A stretch of 64,000 nucleotides of DNA, taken from positions 62,001 through 126,000 of the forward strand of contig JBFMGG010000008.1 in assembly GCA_040752835.1 (NCBI GenBank), given 5' to 3'. The notes under the pieces are model-generated. The model made no database searches, was not told where the DNA came from, and saw nothing but the letters and a program-made list of their open reading frames with translations. Numbering within the stretch: the first letter of the stretch is position 1; each line of letters opens with the position of its first letter. Shown here one piece after another: positions 16,127 through 34,123 of this stretch. A program made the position numbers and the translations under genes. The DNA comes from Campylobacterota bacterium (GTDB lineage Bacteria > Campylobacterota > Campylobacteria > Campylobacterales > Sulfurimonadaceae).

Positions 16127-17602
16127 TTGAAAAAACTAGCCATTATCGGCCGTCCGAACGTCGGCAAAAGCTCGCTCTTCAACCGGCTCCTCAAACAGCG
16201 TGACGCCATCACATCCGAAATGGCCGGAACGACCCGCGACGTTAAAAAACGTCCCGCCGTCATTCTCGACAAAGAGGTCGAGATCCTGGATACCGGAGGA
16301 CTCGACGAGGGGTGCGAACTCTACGAAAAAATCAAGGAAAAATCCCTTAAAGCCGCACATGAGGCCGACATTATCCTGTTCATGGTCGACGGTAAAAGCC
16401 TCCCCGAGGAAGAAGACAAAAAGCTGTTCTACGAACTCGAATCGATGGGTAAATCGGTCGCTCTCGTCGTCAACAAGATCGATAACGACAAGATGCAGGA
16501 GAAACTGTGGGAGTACTACGAATTCGGCACCGACCGGATTTTCGGGATCTCCGTCGCCCATAACCGCCACATCAACGCGCTTCTTGCGTGGATCGCCGCA
16601 CAGCTTCCCGAAAGCGACATGATCGTGATTCCCTCCGCCGAACCCGACGAAATGGATGCGTTTGATGCGTTTGTCGACGGGTTTGAGGACGAGGATGAGG
16701 AATTCGATTACGAGGATGAGGACGAAGAGGACGAGGGCGACGAATCGGAAGTGTTCGTCATCGACGAACCGATGCGCGAAATCGACGATAGCGAACTCAA
16801 CCGGATGAAAGTTGCGATCATCGGCCGCGTCAACGTCGGGAAAAGCTCCCTGCTCAACGCCCTGCTCGGAGAAGACCGTTCGGTTGTCAGCTCGGTTGCC
16901 GGGACGACGATCGACCCGATCGACGAAGAGATGGAATACGAAGGAAAAACGATTACGTTCGTCGATACCGCCGGTATCCGCAAGAGGGGAAAAATTCTGG
17001 GGATCGAGAAATATGCCCTGATGCGGACCGAAGAGATGCTCGATGCGGCTGATATTGCCTTGTTGGTGCTTGATGCCTCCGAGCCGTTCAAGGATCTGGA
17101 TGAAAAGATCGCCGGTTTCGTCGACAAAAACCGGCTGGCATGTCTGATCGTTCTCAACAAGTGGGATCTCGCCCCCAAAGAGGACTACGACAAGATCATC
17201 GCCGAAGTCCGCGACCGTTTCAAGTTTCTCAGCTACGCCCCCATCATCACGATTTCGGCGTTGACCAAACAGCGGGTTCACAAGATTTTCGAGATGCTGC
17301 TGAAAATCAACGACAATTATTCGCAGCGCATTCCGACCGCCCGGATCAACGAAGTGCTCGAGATGGCGCAGCGCAAGCACCCGATCCCCAGCATCAACGG
17401 GCAGACGATCCGCCTTTACTACGGGACGCAGTACGATATCCGACCGCCGCGTATCGCGCTGGTGATGAACAAACCGCAGGGGCTCCATTTCAGCTACCGC
17501 CGCTATTTGACCAACCAGTTTCGTGAGTTGTTCGATTTTGAAGGGACGCCGGTGTTGTTTAAAGCGAAGGCGAAGAATCAGAAGCGCAGACCGAAGAATT
17601 GA
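16127..17602 (+). CDS. der: Ribosome biogenesis GTPase Der, with IS-derived last codons
   Basis: Der (EngA) is a double GTPase needed for 50S assembly. The 491 residues start at a TTG with AAAAGG upstream. G domain 1 has GRPNVGKSS (8-16), DTGG and NKID; G domain 2 has GRVNVGKSS (about 233-241), DTAG and NKWD; a KH-like domain closes the protein. The linker, residues 173-222, is strikingly acidic, with about 20 Asp/Glu packed into 184-208. The final codon AAT and the TGA stop overlap the last four bases of the IS element that follows: precise removal of the element would restore AAG TAA. So the tail PKN replaces an ancestral PKK. Confidence 0.96.
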   Translation: MKKLAIIGRPNVGKSSLFNRLLKQRDAITSEMAGTTRDVKKRPAVILDKEVEILDTGGLDEGCELYEKIKEKSLKAAHEADIILFMVDGKSLPEEEDKKLFYELESMGKSVALVVNKIDNDKMQEKLWEYYEFGTDRIFGISVAHNRHINALLAWIAAQLPESDMIVIPSAEPDEMDAFDAFVDGFEDEDEEFDYEDEDEEDEGDESEVFVIDEPMREIDDSELNRMKVAIIGRVNVGKSSLLNALLGEDRSVVSSVAGTTIDPIDEEMEYEGKTITFVDTAGIRKRGKILGIEKYALMRTEEMLDAADIALLVLDASEPFKDLDEKIAGFVDKNRLACLIVLNKWDLAPKEDYDKIIAEVRDRFKFLSYAPIITISALTKQRVHKIFEMLLKINDNYSQRIPTARINEVLEMAQRKHPIPSINGQTIRLYYGTQYDIRPPRIALVMNKPQGLHFSYRRYLTNQFRELFDFEGTPVLFKAKAKNQKRRPKN

Positions 17603-17630
17603 TACTCCACCTCGCAAGCGAGGTGGATTC
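17599..17630 (-). repeat. Right end of the IS: cleavage tetranucleotide, hairpin, guide
   Basis: On the plus strand TTGA (17599-17602) is the complement of the terminal TCAA. TCCACCTCGC-AA-GCGAGGTGGA (17606-17627) is a perfect hairpin, and ATTC (17627-17630) is the complement of the guide GAAT. Confidence 0.8.
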
Positions 17631-17745
17631 TTCCTCCACAGCTCTTAGGCAGCTGTTTGATGGGAAGCATTGGAGCCGTGTATCCCACGGTCTCGTATGT
17701 TTTTGGCGGCATTGACATCTGCGTTGTCTTTATGGCCGCAAGCTT
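17599..17745 (-). ncRNA. Probable omega RNA (TnpB guide RNA scaffold), copy 1
   Basis: TnpB nucleases use an RNA made from the 3' end of tnpB and the right end, with the guide taken from the flank. Here the 3' end of tnpB can fold (GAG-A-CCGTG/CACGG-CTC at 17673-17694, and ACAGCT/AGCTGT around the stop codon) and is nearly identical at the DNA level to the second copy: three differences in the last 86 bases of the gene. The upstream limit is a guess. The guide following the end would match the 3' end of der. Confidence 0.55.
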
Positions 17746-18796
17746 TACATACAAACTTCTCTTGTTTCAATCGATTCTCTTTGGAGACATGACCGCATAC
17801 GTTGCACGTTTGGCTCGTATGCTGAGGATCGACCTTGATGAACCGTCCACCCCGTGCAATTACTTTGTATTCAAGCAGTTCGAAAAACAGCCCCCACGAT
17901 TGTTGAGTGATCGATCGGTTTAATCCCTGTTTTTGTTTGACGTTCTTGCCGGGCTTCTCTTCCGTTCCCTTGGCCGATTTGGTCATGTTCTTGATTTTCA
18001 AATCCTCTACCACTACAATGCCTTGGTTCTCGGCGTATTGCAGTGAGAGTTTATGCAGAAAATCCTTACGCATATTCGCGATACGGAGATTCTGTTTGGC
18101 CAAACGTGATTTGGCTTTCGCACGGTTCTTTGAACCTTTGCTCTTGCGTGAAAGCTGCTGCGCTCTGAGGCGAAGTTTTGTAAGTTCACGTACAAGATCA
18201 AGAGGTTTGATCTGACCGCCGTTGCTGTCCGCCGCGACCAGTGATACACCTACGTCGATACCGATTGCTTCGGTTGAAGTGCATACCGGAAGGGTATTCA
18301 CGCCATCATCAAGCAAGATGGCAGCGTGATAGAGATTGGCTTCGCGTGATACCGTGACAGTCTTGATCTTGCCGACGACATCCTCACGAAGACCTTTACA
18401 TTTGACCCATCCCACTTTGGGAAGGTAGATCTTAGAGTTTTCAATTTTAACCCGCTGTGGGTATTGAATACTCTGGCAGCTGTGATGTTTGGATTTAAAC
18501 TTTGGATATCCGCCACCTTTGAAAAAATGCTGATATGCTTTATCCATATTGGAGATCGATTGTTGCAGCACTTGGGAATCGGCTTTTTTAAGCCAAGCAG
18601 TTTTTTCTCTATCTTTGAGGGTTACGACCCGTTTTTGCAAGTCAAACTTCCCGACTTTAATGCCGAACTTGGTATAGGCAAACTTTCGCAAAGCGAGAGA
18701 TCGGTTATACACATACCGTGCCGCATCTATCTGATCGGCGATGATGGAACATTGTTCGTTTGATGGATACAAACGGACTTTTACTGCTTTTAACAT
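17645..18796 (-). CDS. tnpB: TnpB, IS200/IS605-family RNA-guided nuclease
   Basis: The 383-residue protein begins MLKAVKVRLYPSNEQ and has the N-terminal helix-turn-helix-like part, the OrfB core and a C-terminal zinc ribbon (CNVCG about 335-339, CKACG about 353-357). The RuvC residues are all present: Asp in IGIDVGVSL (about 196), Glu in VVVEDLKIKNM (about 271), and Asp in KDNADVNAAKN (about 361). It should therefore be an active nuclease. The stop codon lies inside the predicted guide-RNA scaffold. It is divergent from tnpA. Confidence 0.93.
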   Translation of the reverse strand: MLKAVKVRLYPSNEQCSIIADQIDAARYVYNRSLALRKFAYTKFGIKVGKFDLQKRVVTLKDREKTAWLKKADSQVLQQSISNMDKAYQHFFKGGGYPKFKSKHHSCQSIQYPQRVKIENSKIYLPKVGWVKCKGLREDVVGKIKTVTVSREANLYHAAILLDDGVNTLPVCTSTEAIGIDVGVSLVAADSNGGQIKPLDLVRELTKLRLRAQQLSRKSKGSKNRAKAKSRLAKQNLRIANMRKDFLHKLSLQYAENQGIVVVEDLKIKNMTKSAKGTEEKPGKNVKQKQGLNRSITQQSWGLFFELLEYKVIARGGRFIKVDPQHTSQTCNVCGHVSKENRLKQEKFVCKACGHKDNADVNAAKNIRDRGIHGSNASHQTAA

Positions 18797-18876
18797 CGCC
18801 TCTCCTTTATATGGTTTGCATATTGATATTATGCCGATTGTAGGTTACATGTCAAGATATTAAAGGTGTGTATCCC

Positions 18877-19311
18877 ATGGAAGTCCGGAAAAGCCGACAC
18901 GCAACCCATCTTCTCCATGCTCATTTGGTGTTCGTTACGAAGTATCGGTACAAGGTTATCAAAGGGGACCATATCGAACACCTCAGAGAGGTATTCAAAG
19001 AGACGATGGAAGAGATGGGAGGAACGCTCGAAGAGTTTGACGGGGAAGACAATCACATTCACCTCCTTATCCTCTATCCTCCGAAGTGGTCGATTGCCGC
19101 CATCGTCAACAATCTCAAGGGAAGATCGAGCCGGCTGATTCGACGGGATATGCCTGACATCAAGAAACGGTATTGGGGGAAGTTGGCATTATGGAGTAGG
19201 AGTTACTTTGCGGGAAGTGTCGGCGGTGCGCCGCTCTCTATCGTGAAACAATACCTTGAAAAGGTTCTCGTCCCCGAAGGGGATATTCAGCAGCAAGATA
19301 CTCCTGATTGA
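18877..19311 (+). CDS. tnpA: Y1 (HUH) transposase TnpA, IS200/IS605 family
   Basis: This 144-residue single-strand transposase carries the HUH motif in DNHIHLLILYPP (His-Ile-His) and the catalytic tyrosine in SIVKQYLEKV, the two active-site elements of the family. The ATG at 18877 is chosen because AAAGG lies about 10 bases before it; an in-frame GTG at 18868 would leave no spacing. The C-terminal tail (PEGDIQQQDTPD) is short. No frameshift or truncation is seen, so the element should be autonomous. Confidence 0.93.
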   Translation: MEVRKSRHATHLLHAHLVFVTKYRYKVIKGDHIEHLREVFKETMEEMGGTLEEFDGEDNHIHLLILYPPKWSIAAIVNNLKGRSSRLIRRDMPDIKKRYWGKLALWSRSYFAGSVGGAPLSIVKQYLEKVLVPEGDIQQQDTPD

Positions 19312-19321
19312 TCGCTTATAT

Positions 19322-19360
19322 CCACCCCATCGAATGAGGTGGCTTTACGCTCTAACTTCG
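19322..19360 (-). repeat. Left end of the IS: hairpin and guide
   Basis: CCACCcCAT-cga-ATGaGGTGG (19322-19342) is a hairpin with one C-A mismatch. CTTT (19343-19346), the complement of AAAG, lies at its foot. The element ends at 19360, next to the target GTAA (19361-19364). Confidence 0.8.
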
Positions 19361-31696: not shown

Positions 31697-31730
31697 GGCC
31701 GTATTGTATCCTCTTCTTACCTTGGATCGG

Positions 31731-31762
31731 CTGATACTCTACCTTGGAAGCAAGGTGGATTC
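31731..31762 (-). repeat. Right end of the TnpB-only element
   Basis: CTACCTTG-GAAG-CAAGGTGG (31739-31758) is an 8-bp hairpin with one G-T pair. ATTC (31759-31762) is the guide complement. CTGA (31731-31734) stands where the first copy has TTGA. Confidence 0.65.
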
Positions 31763-31880
31763 TTCCTCCACAGCGCTTAAGCAGCTGTTTGATGGGAAGC
31801 ATTAGAGCCGTGTATCCCACGGTCTCGTATGTTTTTAGCGGCATTGACATCTGCGTTGTCTTTGTGTCCGCACGCTTTAC
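31731..31880 (-). ncRNA. Probable omega RNA, copy 2
   Basis: The 3' end of this tnpB is almost identical in DNA to copy 1 over the last 86 bases and keeps the GAG-A-CCGTG/CACGG-CTC stem (around 31806-31827). Near the stop codon the stem reads ACAGC/GCTGT enclosing GCTTAAGC. The guide would be taken from the flank below 31731, in the gap beyond the glycoside-hydrolase-like gene. Confidence 0.5.
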
Positions 31881-32937
31881 ACACAAATTTTTTTTGCGTT
31901 TTACGATTCTTTTTCGAAATGTGACCGCATGCATTACACGTCTGGCTTGTATATTCGGGAGTAACCTTCACAAGCCGACCACCGCGTCGGGCAGTCTTGT
32001 ATGCCAGCATCTCGAAGAACATACCCCATCCATTTTTCAGTATGGATCGGTTCAAACCGGACTTCGCTCTGACATTCTTCCCCGGCTTTTCTTTGGTTCC
32101 TTTCGCAGATTTTGTCATGTTTTTCACATTTAATTCCTCAACGACGACCACTTGGTTTTCGCTATATCGTGCTGAGAGCTTGTGAAGGAAATCCTTGCGT
32201 ATGTTGGCGATACGAAAGTTCTGTTTTGCAAGACGCATCTTCGCCTTAAGGTGGTTATTCGAGCCTTTTTGTTTTCGGGAGAGCTGTTGGTGGCGCTTGC
32301 GCAGCTTTACCAACTCCCGTTCAAAGTCGAGTGGAGTGACGAGGTTTCCATTCGAATCTGCAACAACCGCTGCGACACCCATGTCAAGTCCGATAGTCTG
32401 CGCGTTGTGAGATGGCGTAAAGGCTTCGATACCGTCCTCGGTTAGGATTGCAGCGTGATATTGACAAGCTTCCATCGAGACCGTGACGGTCTTGATCTTC
32501 CCAGAATTCACCGCTCTTAAACCTTTGGCTTTTACCCACCCGACTTTTGGAAGGTAGACTTTCCCGTTATCGATCTTAACCCGTTGAGGGTACTGGTAAC
32601 TTTGACGGGAATGGTGTTTAGATTTAAAGTGAGGGAATCCGGGCGTTTCACCTTGCTTGATGCGGCGGAAGAAATGTTTATACGCTTCGTCCATGTGGCG
32701 AATACTTTGCTGTAATGCCTGCGAATCCGCATTCTTGAGCCACGGGTGGCGTTCTTTCAAAATGGCAATCCGTTTATCAAGAATGTTTTTAGAGATTGTT
32801 ACACCCCACTTTTTATAAGCGTACTTGCGAAGCGCGAGGGAACGGTTATAGATGTATCGACACGCACCGAACTGGAAGGCAATAATCTCTTCTTGTGCAC
32901 TAGTCGGGTAGAGTCGGACTTTCACAGTTTTGAGCAT
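31777..32937 (-). CDS. tnpB: TnpB, second copy
   Basis: The 386-residue protein starts MLKTVKVRLYPTSAQ. The RuvC residues are intact: Asp in IGLDMGVAAV, Glu in VVVEELNVKNM, Asp in KDNADVNAAKN, with the zinc ribbon CNACG/CKACG. The last 37 residues are identical to copy 1, while the rest is clearly diverged, so this is an old paralogue and not a recent duplicate. The frame is intact although the element lacks tnpA, which suggests the nuclease is under selection or was lost from mobility recently. ATG 32937 is preferred to 32946 by alignment with copy 1. Confidence 0.92.
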   Translation of the reverse strand: MLKTVKVRLYPTSAQEEIIAFQFGACRYIYNRSLALRKYAYKKWGVTISKNILDKRIAILKERHPWLKNADSQALQQSIRHMDEAYKHFFRRIKQGETPGFPHFKSKHHSRQSYQYPQRVKIDNGKVYLPKVGWVKAKGLRAVNSGKIKTVTVSMEACQYHAAILTEDGIEAFTPSHNAQTIGLDMGVAAVVADSNGNLVTPLDFERELVKLRKRHQQLSRKQKGSNNHLKAKMRLAKQNFRIANIRKDFLHKLSARYSENQVVVVEELNVKNMTKSAKGTKEKPGKNVRAKSGLNRSILKNGWGMFFEMLAYKTARRGGRLVKVTPEYTSQTCNACGHISKKNRKTQKKFVCKACGHKDNADVNAAKNIRDRGIHGSNASHQTAA

Positions 32938-33076
32938 CGCTTTCACTTTGTAACGGTGTGTATTGTATGGTACTGAAATATCGACTAATGCTGGGAATAA
33001 TATGTTGATATGACATGCATAGGATTGGAATTTAAAAAGTCATTATCCGTCCACTCATTATTTATGAGCTGATACG

Positions 33077-33117
33077 CATCCCTTAAAGAGAGGTAGCTTT
33101 TCGCTTGCGTTTGGTAA
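33077..33117 (-). repeat. Left end of the TnpB-only element and its target
   Basis: CATCCcTT-aaag-AGaGGTAG keeps the C-A mismatch of the first copy but has two further unpaired positions near its foot. CTTT (33097-33100) is the guide complement, and GTAA (33114-33117) the target complement. Confidence 0.5.
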
Positions 33118-33120
33118 AAT
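33115..33120 (+). promoter_or_regulatory. -10 box of the GT9 gene, adjacent to the TnpB element
   Basis: TAAAAT in GGTAAAATGG lies 28 bases before the ATG at 33149. Its first bases are part of the GTAA target, so the element replaced everything upstream of the -10 box. Confidence 0.45.
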
Positions 33121-33148: not shown

Positions 33149-34123
33149 ATGAACATACTGGTGGTGCGTAATGACAAACTCGGGGATTTCATCACCGCTT
33201 TGCCGACGCTGTACGTTCTAAAACGCCATGACCCTTGCAACCGCATCGTCGCTCTTGTCGCCCCGCTCAACCGCTCGCTGGCTGAATCGTGCGATTTTAT
33301 CGACGAGGTGATCGTCGACGGCGGAGGGGACATTCTTGAGCTCGCTTTCAAAATCCGCGAGGCGAAAATCGACGCGTCAATTACCCTGTTTTCCAATACC
33401 CGCGTCGCGATCGCCCAGTTCCTGGCGCGGATACCCATCCGGATCGCCCCGGCGACGAAGATCGCCCAGATTTTTTACAACCGTCGCATCCAACAGCGCC
33501 GAAGCCGGGTGGAGATGGCCGAATTCGAATACAATCTGCAGCTAGCGCGCGCGCTGTTTGCGCAGATCGACCTTGATTTCCCCAAACCGCTGCTGCGTTT
33601 TGATGATACCGCTTATCGGGTTTTTTGCGCCGAGTACGGCATCACCCGTCCCGTCGTGGCGTTTCACCCTGGATTCGGAGGGTCTTCGGATGCAAACTGG
33701 ACACTGGGCGAATACGTCGAACTCGTACGGATCGCCGAAGCATGCGGGGCGGTGGACGTTGTGATGACGTTCGGCCCCGACGAGGAAGCGCTTTGCGAGG
33801 AAGCCGCGGCGTTACTGGGCACACAGAGCCGTACGCATCTGTACCGTTCGCGCGGAAGCGTCGTCGATTTTGCACATGTATTAAGCAGTTTTAAACTGTT
33901 TATAAGTACATCGACCGGGACCTATCACCTCGCGAGCGCGTGCGGTTGCGAGACGTTTACTTTTTTCGCCGATACGCTCTTTGCTTCGGCTTCGCGCTGG
34001 AAAAGTATCGGGGATGAAGCCGGGCAGCACCATTACATGATTCCTCAGAACCCGCAAGGCAGAGAAGCGATGTTCGAGAGGGTCAAGCGGGAGTTGAAAA
34101 GTCGCCTCGAAGCAGGGCTTTGA
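33149..34123 (+). CDS. GT9-family glycosyltransferase (heptosyltransferase-like)
   Basis: The 324-residue protein begins MNILVVRNDKLGDFITALPT, the classic GT9 N-terminus shared with WaaC/WaaF/WaaQ. It contains VAFHPGFGGSSDANW and, in place of the usual NDSGxxHxA, STSTGTYHLASACG, with TFFADTLFASASRW after it. An ADP-heptose or related donor is probable, and transfer to the lipopolysaccharide core is inferred from the neighbours. It overlaps the convergent kinase gene by 41 bases. Confidence 0.88.
   Translation: MNILVVRNDKLGDFITALPTLYVLKRHDPCNRIVALVAPLNRSLAESCDFIDEVIVDGGGDILELAFKIREAKIDASITLFSNTRVAIAQFLARIPIRIAPATKIAQIFYNRRIQQRRSRVEMAEFEYNLQLARALFAQIDLDFPKPLLRFDDTAYRVFCAEYGITRPVVAFHPGFGGSSDANWTLGEYVELVRIAEACGAVDVVMTFGPDEEALCEEAAALLGTQSRTHLYRSRGSVVDFAHVLSSFKLFISTSTGTYHLASACGCETFTFFADTLFASASRWKSIGDEAGQHHYMIPQNPQGREAMFERVKRELKSRLEAGL

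What the first reader, a model, noticed from the sequence alone, without database searches (positions are those of the whole stretch)
31731..33117. TnpB-only element with worn ends but an intact nuclease, at the promoter of a core glycosyltransferase
tnpA is missing, the terminal tetranucleotide is TCAG and the left hairpin has extra mismatches, yet TnpB keeps all catalytic residues. The target GTAA overlaps the -10 box (GGTAAAATGG) of the GT9 gene, so any native upstream region was displaced. This may be a retained or co-opted TnpB, or an element moved in trans by the first copy.
Basis: partly seen in the sequence, partly recalled or inferred. Interest (0 to 1): 0.55.

Follow-up and report, generated by a model that had tools for sequence, protein, structure and literature searches.

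The report
Hybrid, stranded TnpB jumping element
A small bacterial jumping element that lacks its own mover gene landed just ahead of a sugar-transferase gene in this lineage; its right end looks borrowed from the kind of complete element that sits elsewhere in the same genome, so it is most likely an ordinary hitch-hiking element rather than a gene the cell has adopted.

Summary
The element is 31731-33113 (1,383 bp, minus strand): open tnpB with RuvC D185/E267/D363 and two CxxC pairs, no tnpA, right end ending TCAG, weakened left hairpin, next to TTAC. That TTAC (GTAA on +) overlaps the -10-like box of a GT9 gene. In a sister genome (GT9 98% identical) the site is empty and collinear, without target duplication; none of 29 other genus loci read carries the element there. 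It is thus best read as a lineage-specific insertion that moved everything native upstream of the -10 box 1.38 kb away. With about 5% synonymous divergence since the split, an open frame does not require selection; nothing found supports co-option.

New here: the element is a hybrid. Its tnpB body groups with an element from another family of the order (75% nt, against 62% to copy 1). Its last ~160 bp (TnpB C-terminus, predicted omegaRNA scaffold, right end) is 91% identical to copy 1 and 70% to that relative. The hybrid probably formed before the insertion and moved in trans on a copy-1-type TnpA; tnpA-less relatives are common, and one genome holds three. It is a new member of a known kind, with a mosaic right end.

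The parts
31731..33113 (-). whole element (copy 2), 1,383 bp, tnpB-only
   Evidence: collinear empty site in sister G006 and in L032
31777..32937 (-). tnpB, 386 aa, RuvC D185/E267/D363 and CxxC pairs in place
31731..31892 (-). segment of copy-1 type (last 38 tnpB codons + omegaRNA scaffold + right end); the tnpB body upstream is of L035 type
   Evidence: max-chi2 60.4, 0 of 20000 permutations; 0 of 2000 simulations reach the observed copy1-copy2 identity; topology test alone not significant
31731..31850 (-). predicted omegaRNA scaffold (three helices, 98.2% of cells paired across 11 elements)
31711..31730 (-). predicted omegaRNA guide, copied from the flank of the insertion
   Evidence: position just after the right end, by analogy with ISDra2 (passages); inference
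31739..31758 (-). right-end hairpin, 7 of 8 pairs, one C-G of copy 1 read as T-A here
31759..31762 (-). right guide GAAT (same letters as IS608 GR)
31731..31734 (-). right cleavage tetranucleotide TCAG (TCAA in the compared relatives)
33076..33096 (-). left-end hairpin, 6 of 8 pairs
33097..33100 (-). left guide AAAG (same letters as IS608 GL)
33114..33117 (-). retained target TTAC (left cleavage site)
33115..33120 (+). GT9 -10-like hexamer TAAAAT, left intact by the insertion
   Evidence: box present in 28 of 29 other genus loci
33149..34123 (+). GT9 (Glyco_transf_9) gene
17599..19360 (-). copy 1: complete element with tnpB 17645-18796 (-), tnpA 18877-19311 (+), TCAA right end, TTAC left flank

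Best explanation
Copy 2 is a non-autonomous, tnpB-only derivative of an IS608-like IS200/IS605 element. Shown: it lies 3' of a TTAC (minus strand) in the GT9 promoter, where the sister species and outgroups have an uninterrupted site, with no target duplication; it carries an open TnpB frame, an IS608-type left guide (AAAG) and right guide (GAAT), and no transposase; its right ~160 bp resembles copy 1 far more than its tnpB body does. Inferred: an L035-like element lost tnpA and exchanged its omegaRNA/right-end block with a copy-1-type element before arriving here; a copy-1-type TnpA then peeled and pasted it in trans as single-stranded DNA; TnpB, with an omegaRNA whose guide is the insertion flank, would cut the resealed donor site and help retain the element. 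The right cleavage site (TCAG), left hairpin and tnpB ribosome-binding site look worn, so it is probably poorly mobile now. The GT9 gene keeps its -10 box but receives new upstream sequence from the left end.
For: Empty collinear site in G006 and outgroups. No tnpA in the element, one Y1 transposase in the genome, with HIH and QYLEK motifs. Guides and left site match IS608 GL AAAG, GR GAAT, CL TTAC. Mosaic: body 75.1% to L035 and 62.3% to copy 1; 3' part 69.6% and 90.6%; max-chi2 60.4, 0 of 20000 permutations; body tree joins copy 2 with L035 at 100%, alternative rejected p-AU 4e-5; 0 of 2000 simulated 3' segments reach the observed identity. Copy1-copy2 pS in the block is 0.36 (38 codons) against about 0.05 between the host species, so the hybrid is probably older than the insertion. 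tnpA-less forms are common in the family: of 11 elements with a readable left end, 3 (copy 1, L037, L058) have a complete tnpA and 541-564 nt between target and tnpB; the 7 others besides copy 2 have 117-281 nt, copy 2 has 176. One genome (G354) holds three compact copies about 93% alike at different places, as spread in trans would give. 21 of 22 IS605 tnpA copies in Halanaerobium are broken (PMC7290912 results). omegaRNA structure conserved, 9 of 25 pairs with double changes.
Against: The 3' segment alone does not reject grouping copy 2 with L035 by topology (p-AU 0.121); the case rests on identities, site patterns and branch lengths. No other copy of the same hybrid was found in the 41 genus genomes, so repeated movement of this very element is not seen. 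Loss of tnpA after insertion is not excluded. TCAG may be a variant that TnpA still cuts. Precise excision from G006 cannot be strictly told from absence, though outgroups are empty too.
Confidence: 0.75

Rival explanations
1. Post-insertion gene conversion: copy 2 arrived with its own right end and was later overwritten by resident copy 1, about 12 kb away.
For: Both copies lie in the same genome and the similar block is short and terminal.
Against: The block differs at 15 of 159 aligned sites and pS is 0.36 over 38 codons, about seven times the divergence since the split from G006, where the site is empty; copy 1's right end is unchanged between the species over 122 nt. A conversion after insertion should be nearly identical.
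Confidence: 0.12
2. Retained or co-opted TnpB: the host keeps it as an RNA-guided regulator of GT9 or other genes.
For: Frame open and catalytic residues intact although the ends are worn; it sits at a promoter and is transcribed away from it. If all of the divergence fell on this lineage the neutral chance of no stop is only 0.05-0.12.
Against: Lineage-specific insertion; nuclease residues intact, unlike TldR (recalled); no second target of TTAC plus 11 guide bases at up to one mismatch in G000 or G006; with divergence shared evenly the neutral chance of no stop is 0.23-0.34; the AAAGGAG of copy 1 and L035 ahead of tnpB reads AAAGTGA here.
Confidence: 0.06
3. The element inserted complete with its own tnpA and lost tnpA in place.
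For: About 100 bp of unplaced AT-rich sequence lies where tnpA should be; several relatives keep tnpA fragments (L036, L047, L061).
Against: The left guide is AAAG and the target TTAC, as in copy 1, whereas L035 has AAAA and TTAT; little time since insertion; compact tnpB-only copies spread in relatives.
Confidence: 0.25
4. No recombination: the uneven identity is only strong constraint on the omegaRNA/right end.
For: The 3' segment is more conserved in most pairs (mean excess 10.2 points); topology test on it not significant (p-AU 0.121).
Against: Copy 1-copy 2 excess is 28.2 points (others mean 10.2, sd 4.9, n = 54) while copy 2-L035 falls by 5.5; 0 of 2000 simulations on the scaled body tree reach it.
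Confidence: 0.07

Closest known systems
IS608 of Helicobacter pylori (IS200/IS605 family)
   Same: TTAC target retained on the left, left guide AAAG, right guide GAAT, subterminal hairpins (PMC5934647 passages); no target duplication here
   Different: no tnpA; right cleavage site TCAG instead of TCAA; left hairpin weakened
tnpA-deleted IS605 elements of Halanaerobium hydrogeniformans (PMC7290912)
   Same: tnpA decayed beside tnpB in many copies; shuffling among tnpBs proposed (results and discussion sections read)
   Different: there near-identical inserts within one family; here a ~160 bp right-end block shared between elements whose TnpBs are 69% identical
ISDra2 TnpB (PDB 8bf8; PMC8612924)
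   Same: same protein family, E 2.6e-56 over residues 4-376; RNA guide from right end and flank (passages)
   Different: TAM there is TTGAT; here TTAC is predicted, untested
Element L035 (PWVP01000220.1, Epsilonproteobacteria MAG CSSed11_302)
   Same: closest tnpB body (78% aa); no tnpA match by tblastn, fragments seen by eye
   Different: left guide AAAA with TTAT flank, right end of another type ending TCAA
Copy 1 in this window (17599-19360)
   Same: right end and guides, TTAC target
   Different: has tnpA, TCAA, full hairpins; tnpB body 62% identical in DNA
Compact tnpB-only elements in G354 and G438 (L064, L080, L085, L063)
   Same: no tnpA, short leader (117-137 nt where the left end was read)
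   Different: TTAT targets and AAAA guides; TnpB about 60-62% identical to copy 2

Membership tests
IS200/IS605, IS608 type, autonomous element | insertion 3' of TTAC, retained on the left, no target duplication | tested here: met
   empty site in G006 and L032
IS200/IS605, IS608 type, autonomous element | left guide AAAG and right guide GAAT 5' of the hairpins | tested here: met
IS200/IS605, IS608 type, autonomous element | right cleavage site TCAA | tested here: not met
   TCAG
IS200/IS605, IS608 type, autonomous element | subterminal hairpins at both ends | tested here: inconclusive
   right 7 of 8 pairs, left 6 of 8; left not the predicted fold
IS200/IS605, IS608 type, autonomous element | own Y1 HUH transposase TnpA | tested here: not met
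   only copy 1 has one
tnpB-only (IS1341-type) derivative of IS200/IS605 | IS200/IS605-like ends flanking tnpB without tnpA | tested here: met
TnpB RNA-guided nuclease | RuvC D/E/D and zinc ribbon | tested here: met
TnpB RNA-guided nuclease | omegaRNA from the right end | tested here: inconclusive
   conserved, covarying structure by computation; no Rfam family matched; no RNA data
TnpB RNA-guided nuclease | RNA-guided DNA cutting | not testable with these tools
   needs an assay
TldR-type co-opted TnpB | inactivated RuvC (recalled) | tested here: not met
   triad intact
TldR-type co-opted TnpB | guide matching a host site other than its own insertion (recalled) | tested here: not met
   no match to TTAC plus 11 guide bases with up to 1 mismatch in G000 or G006; shorter or other-TAM matches not tested
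TldR-type co-opted TnpB | conserved position in relatives | tested here: not met

The most novel reading that the evidence does not exclude
TnpB elements swap their omegaRNA/right-end block as a module: by taking that block (and the matching left guide) from a resident autonomous type, a foreign tnpB becomes a passenger of that type's transposase while keeping its own nuclease, i.e. parasitism by end exchange.
Probability: 0.3. Interest if true: 0.5.

Novelty: new member of a known kind. Interest (0 to 1): 0.3.

Why it matters
The site gives a clean before/after pair for an IS608-type insertion in a promoter, showing how the retained TTAC leaves a -10 box intact while replacing what lies upstream. 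The mosaic right end suggests that omegaRNA and transposase recognition sequences, which share the same DNA, can be exchanged as one block between diverged TnpB elements, a testable route by which tnpB-only elements stay mobile.

Tried and rejected
Rfam search of the element: one match at E 0.37, far below the family's gathering score, taken as chance. IMG/VR scan for close TnpB relatives: none. Placing the ~100 bp between left end and tnpB: a 174-base query covering it (32940-33113) matched only itself in the 41 genus genomes. Promoter scan: none of its 5 promoter-like sites lies at the GT9 start. A similarity of copy 2's left end (GTATCAGC) to its right end was seen and not pursued. The pairwise alignment used near-free gaps and was uninformative; the empty site was read from the G006 text it printed and. 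A wrong reading frame of copy 1 TnpA was the tblastn query; its tnpA rows are not used, and the search was redone with the right frame. The topology test on the 3' segment did not reject the non-recombinant tree. Beside copy 2, 10 elements were aligned (copy 1, L035, L036, L037, L047, L058, L060, L061, L063, L080); left out of those at about 57% or more were L059 (identical to L035), L062 (same element as L058), L064, L065, L066, L081, L085 and one place without a locus in G438 (cut or partial), and the short sister-genome ends. More distant hits (52% or less) were not aligned. GT9 was found in 38 of 41 genus genomes; 29 loci besides the window's own were held and read. Order and class searches were samples (398 and 397 genomes) with strict limits (1e-40, 1e-80).

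Full report
What is there. The element spans 31731-33113. Read on the minus strand it is TTAC (33117-33114, retained target), left end with guide AAAG and a weak hairpin, a leader (176 nt from target to ATG), tnpB (ATG 32937, stop at 31777), right guide GAAT, right hairpin, and TCAG at 31734-31731. The right end overlaps the end of the tnpB frame's neighbourhood as usual for this family. The protein is a full TnpB (Pfam; NCBIfam guided_TnpB 297.9 bits; ISDra2 TnpB chains E 2.6e-56), with D185, E267, D363 and the CxxC pairs (334, 353) in place (D191 and E278 of ISDra2 are from PMC8612924 passages, the third aspartate is recalled). The genome holds two TnpBs, this one and copy 1 at 17645-18796, 69% identical, and one Y1 transposase, copy 1's, whose frame contains HIH and QYLEK.

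The empty site. In G006, whose GT9 is 98% identical, the two divergent genes are joined on the minus strand by GCCATTTTAC directly followed by ACGATTGAAGGTAAG; the window has GCCATTTTAC, the element, then CCGATCCAAGGTAAG. L032 reads CTTACCTTCAATCGG-GTAAAAT on the plus strand; the window reads CTTACCTTGGATCGG, the element, GTAAAAT. So 1,383 bp were inserted with no duplication; two bases of the left flank differ from L032. Of 29 other GT9 loci read, none carries the element there, and 28 have a [GT]GTA[AG]AAT box 32-137 bp upstream of GT9 (L017 is the exception). TnpB of this type is found in no other genus genome except as two 23-residue right-end pieces in G006. The window keeps TAAAAT at 33115-33120; everything upstream of the GTAA was moved away. 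The left end supplies TTTGG before TAAAAT, which forms a TGn (extended -10) motif not present in G006, L007, L008 or L032; that this matters for expression is inference, and the promoter scan lists no site there.

Age. GT9 and the divergent neighbour differ from G006 by dS 0.058 and 0.049. If copy 2 inserted right after the split and changes were shared evenly, about 29-34 neutral changes would have hit tnpB and the chance of no stop would be 0.23-0.34, indels not counted; if all of the divergence fell on this lineage it would be 0.05-0.12. An intact frame is weak evidence at best for retention.

The family moves. G006 holds two copy-1-type right ends and two left ends, all at contig ends. One pair lies at the orthologous site of copy 1 (flanks). 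The other pair (L003, L053) lies at a place where this genome has no element (its sequence there reads TTTC, not TTAC). No copy-2-type left end was found in the other 40 genus genomes. Further out, tnpA-less forms prevail: with the right TnpA frame, full-length matches occur in L037 and L058/L062, fragments in L036, L047 and L061, none in L035, L060, L063 or L080 (L060 has only 954 bp before tnpB; L035 shows two tnpA-like fragments by eye). Distance from target to tnpB start is 541-564 nt in copy 1, L037 and L058, and 117-281 nt in L035, L036, L061, L063, L065, L080 and L085. In G354 three copies (L064, L080, L085) at different places are about 93% alike.

The hybrid. Copy 1 and copy 2 are 62.3% identical (640 of 1027) over the tnpB body but 90.6% (144 of 159) over the last part of tnpB plus the right end; copy 2 and L035 are 75.1% (785 of 1045) and 69.6% (110 of 158). 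Among 359 sites that separate the three, the best split gives 93:227 before and 36:3 after (copy 2 = copy 1: copy 2 = L035), max-chi2 60.4, 0 of 20000 permutations (largest 28.5). Trees of 11 elements: the 5' part joins copy 2 with L035 at 100%, and the copy 1-copy 2 alternative is rejected (p-AU 4e-5); the 3' part joins copy 2 with copy 1, but the alternative is not rejected (p-AU 0.121). When the 5' tree is scaled to the 3' segment and 2000 segments are simulated, copy 1-copy 2 identity is 70.1% on average and 80.5% at most, against 90.6% observed. In the 54 other pairs the 3' excess is 10.2 points (sd 4.9); here it is 28.2. So simple conservation is not enough. The block includes the predicted omegaRNA: three helices, 25 pairs, 98.2% of cells paired, 9 pairs with changes on both sides, slid versions 40-51% (the pair-type count is not unusual, 51 of 500 shuffles). 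The copy1-copy2 synonymous difference in the block (pS 0.36 over 38 codons, so few sites) is well above the 0.05 between host species, so the exchange probably came before the insertion.

Left guides and targets. Read: guide AAAG with TTAC in copy 1, copy 2 and the second G006 copy; guide AAAA with TTAT in L035, L058/L062, L061, L063, L065, L080, L085; exceptions L037 (AAAA, TTAC) and L036 (AAGA, TTAT). In IS608 the guide pairs with the target (PMC5934647 passages). Copy 2 thus has the body of an AAAA/TTAT relative but the guide and target of copy 1.

Wear. TCAG against TCAA in the 10 other elements of A1 and in both G006 right ends; left hairpin with two mismatches, right hairpin with one; the single-strand fold of the left end prefers other pairs; AAAGGAG ahead of tnpB in copy 1 and L035 reads AAAGTGA. 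How far this hinders TnpA is untested.

Mechanism. Best account: a tnpA-less element with a copy-1-type right end was moved by a copy-1-type TnpA as single-stranded DNA into TTAC of the GT9 promoter (precise insertion shown; the enzyme and route inferred). tnpB-only and tnpA-deleted derivatives are well known: isolated tnpB genes in IS200/IS605 elements are mentioned in PMC8612924 (passage), and in Halanaerobium 17 of 22 IS605 tnpA copies share one internal deletion while tnpB shuffling is proposed (PMC7290912, results and discussion). Searches for standalone, trans-moved, mosaic or gene-converted tnpB elements listed, besides PMC7290912, no paper that I recognised from titles and abstract openings as describing such a right-end exchange; subscription papers are not held.

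Verdict. Kind: known. Twist: mosaic right end.

Noticed in passing
G006 loci L003 and L053; G000 locus L087: A second copy-1-type element in the sister genome has no counterpart in this genome, so the complete type differs in occupancy between the two species.
   Followed up: yes
upstream of GT9, window 31700-33120; L006-L034: TTAC-N8/9-box arrangement (TTACCTTCAATCAGGTAAAAT in several) in 12 of 29 relatives, an inverted repeat overlapping the -10 box, possibly an operator between the two divergent genes; the insertion splits it.
   Followed up: partly
left ends of L035, L036, L037, L058, L061, L063, L065, L080, L085: Left guide and target tetranucleotide mostly covary (AAAG-TTAC, AAAA-TTAT), with L037 and L036 exceptions.
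   Followed up: partly
L064, L080, L085 (G354): Three compact tnpB-only copies about 93% alike at different places in one genome: a natural case for trans mobilisation.
   Followed up: partly
L058 (NZ_AP027371.1, Hydrogenimonas cancrithermarum plasmid pISO32_1): A complete tnpA-tnpB relative (TnpB 62% identical) sits on a plasmid, a possible vehicle between genera.
   Followed up: no
window about 40000-64000: GC falls from about 0.52-0.55 (first 32 kb) to 0.40-0.45 where surface polysaccharide-type genes lie (glycosyltransferase, WbqC, DHQ synthase-like, APS kinase).
   Followed up: no
window 32958-33055: About 100 bp of AT-rich sequence of unknown origin where tnpA should be, with a short CTCAT/ATGAG hairpin.
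   Followed up: partly
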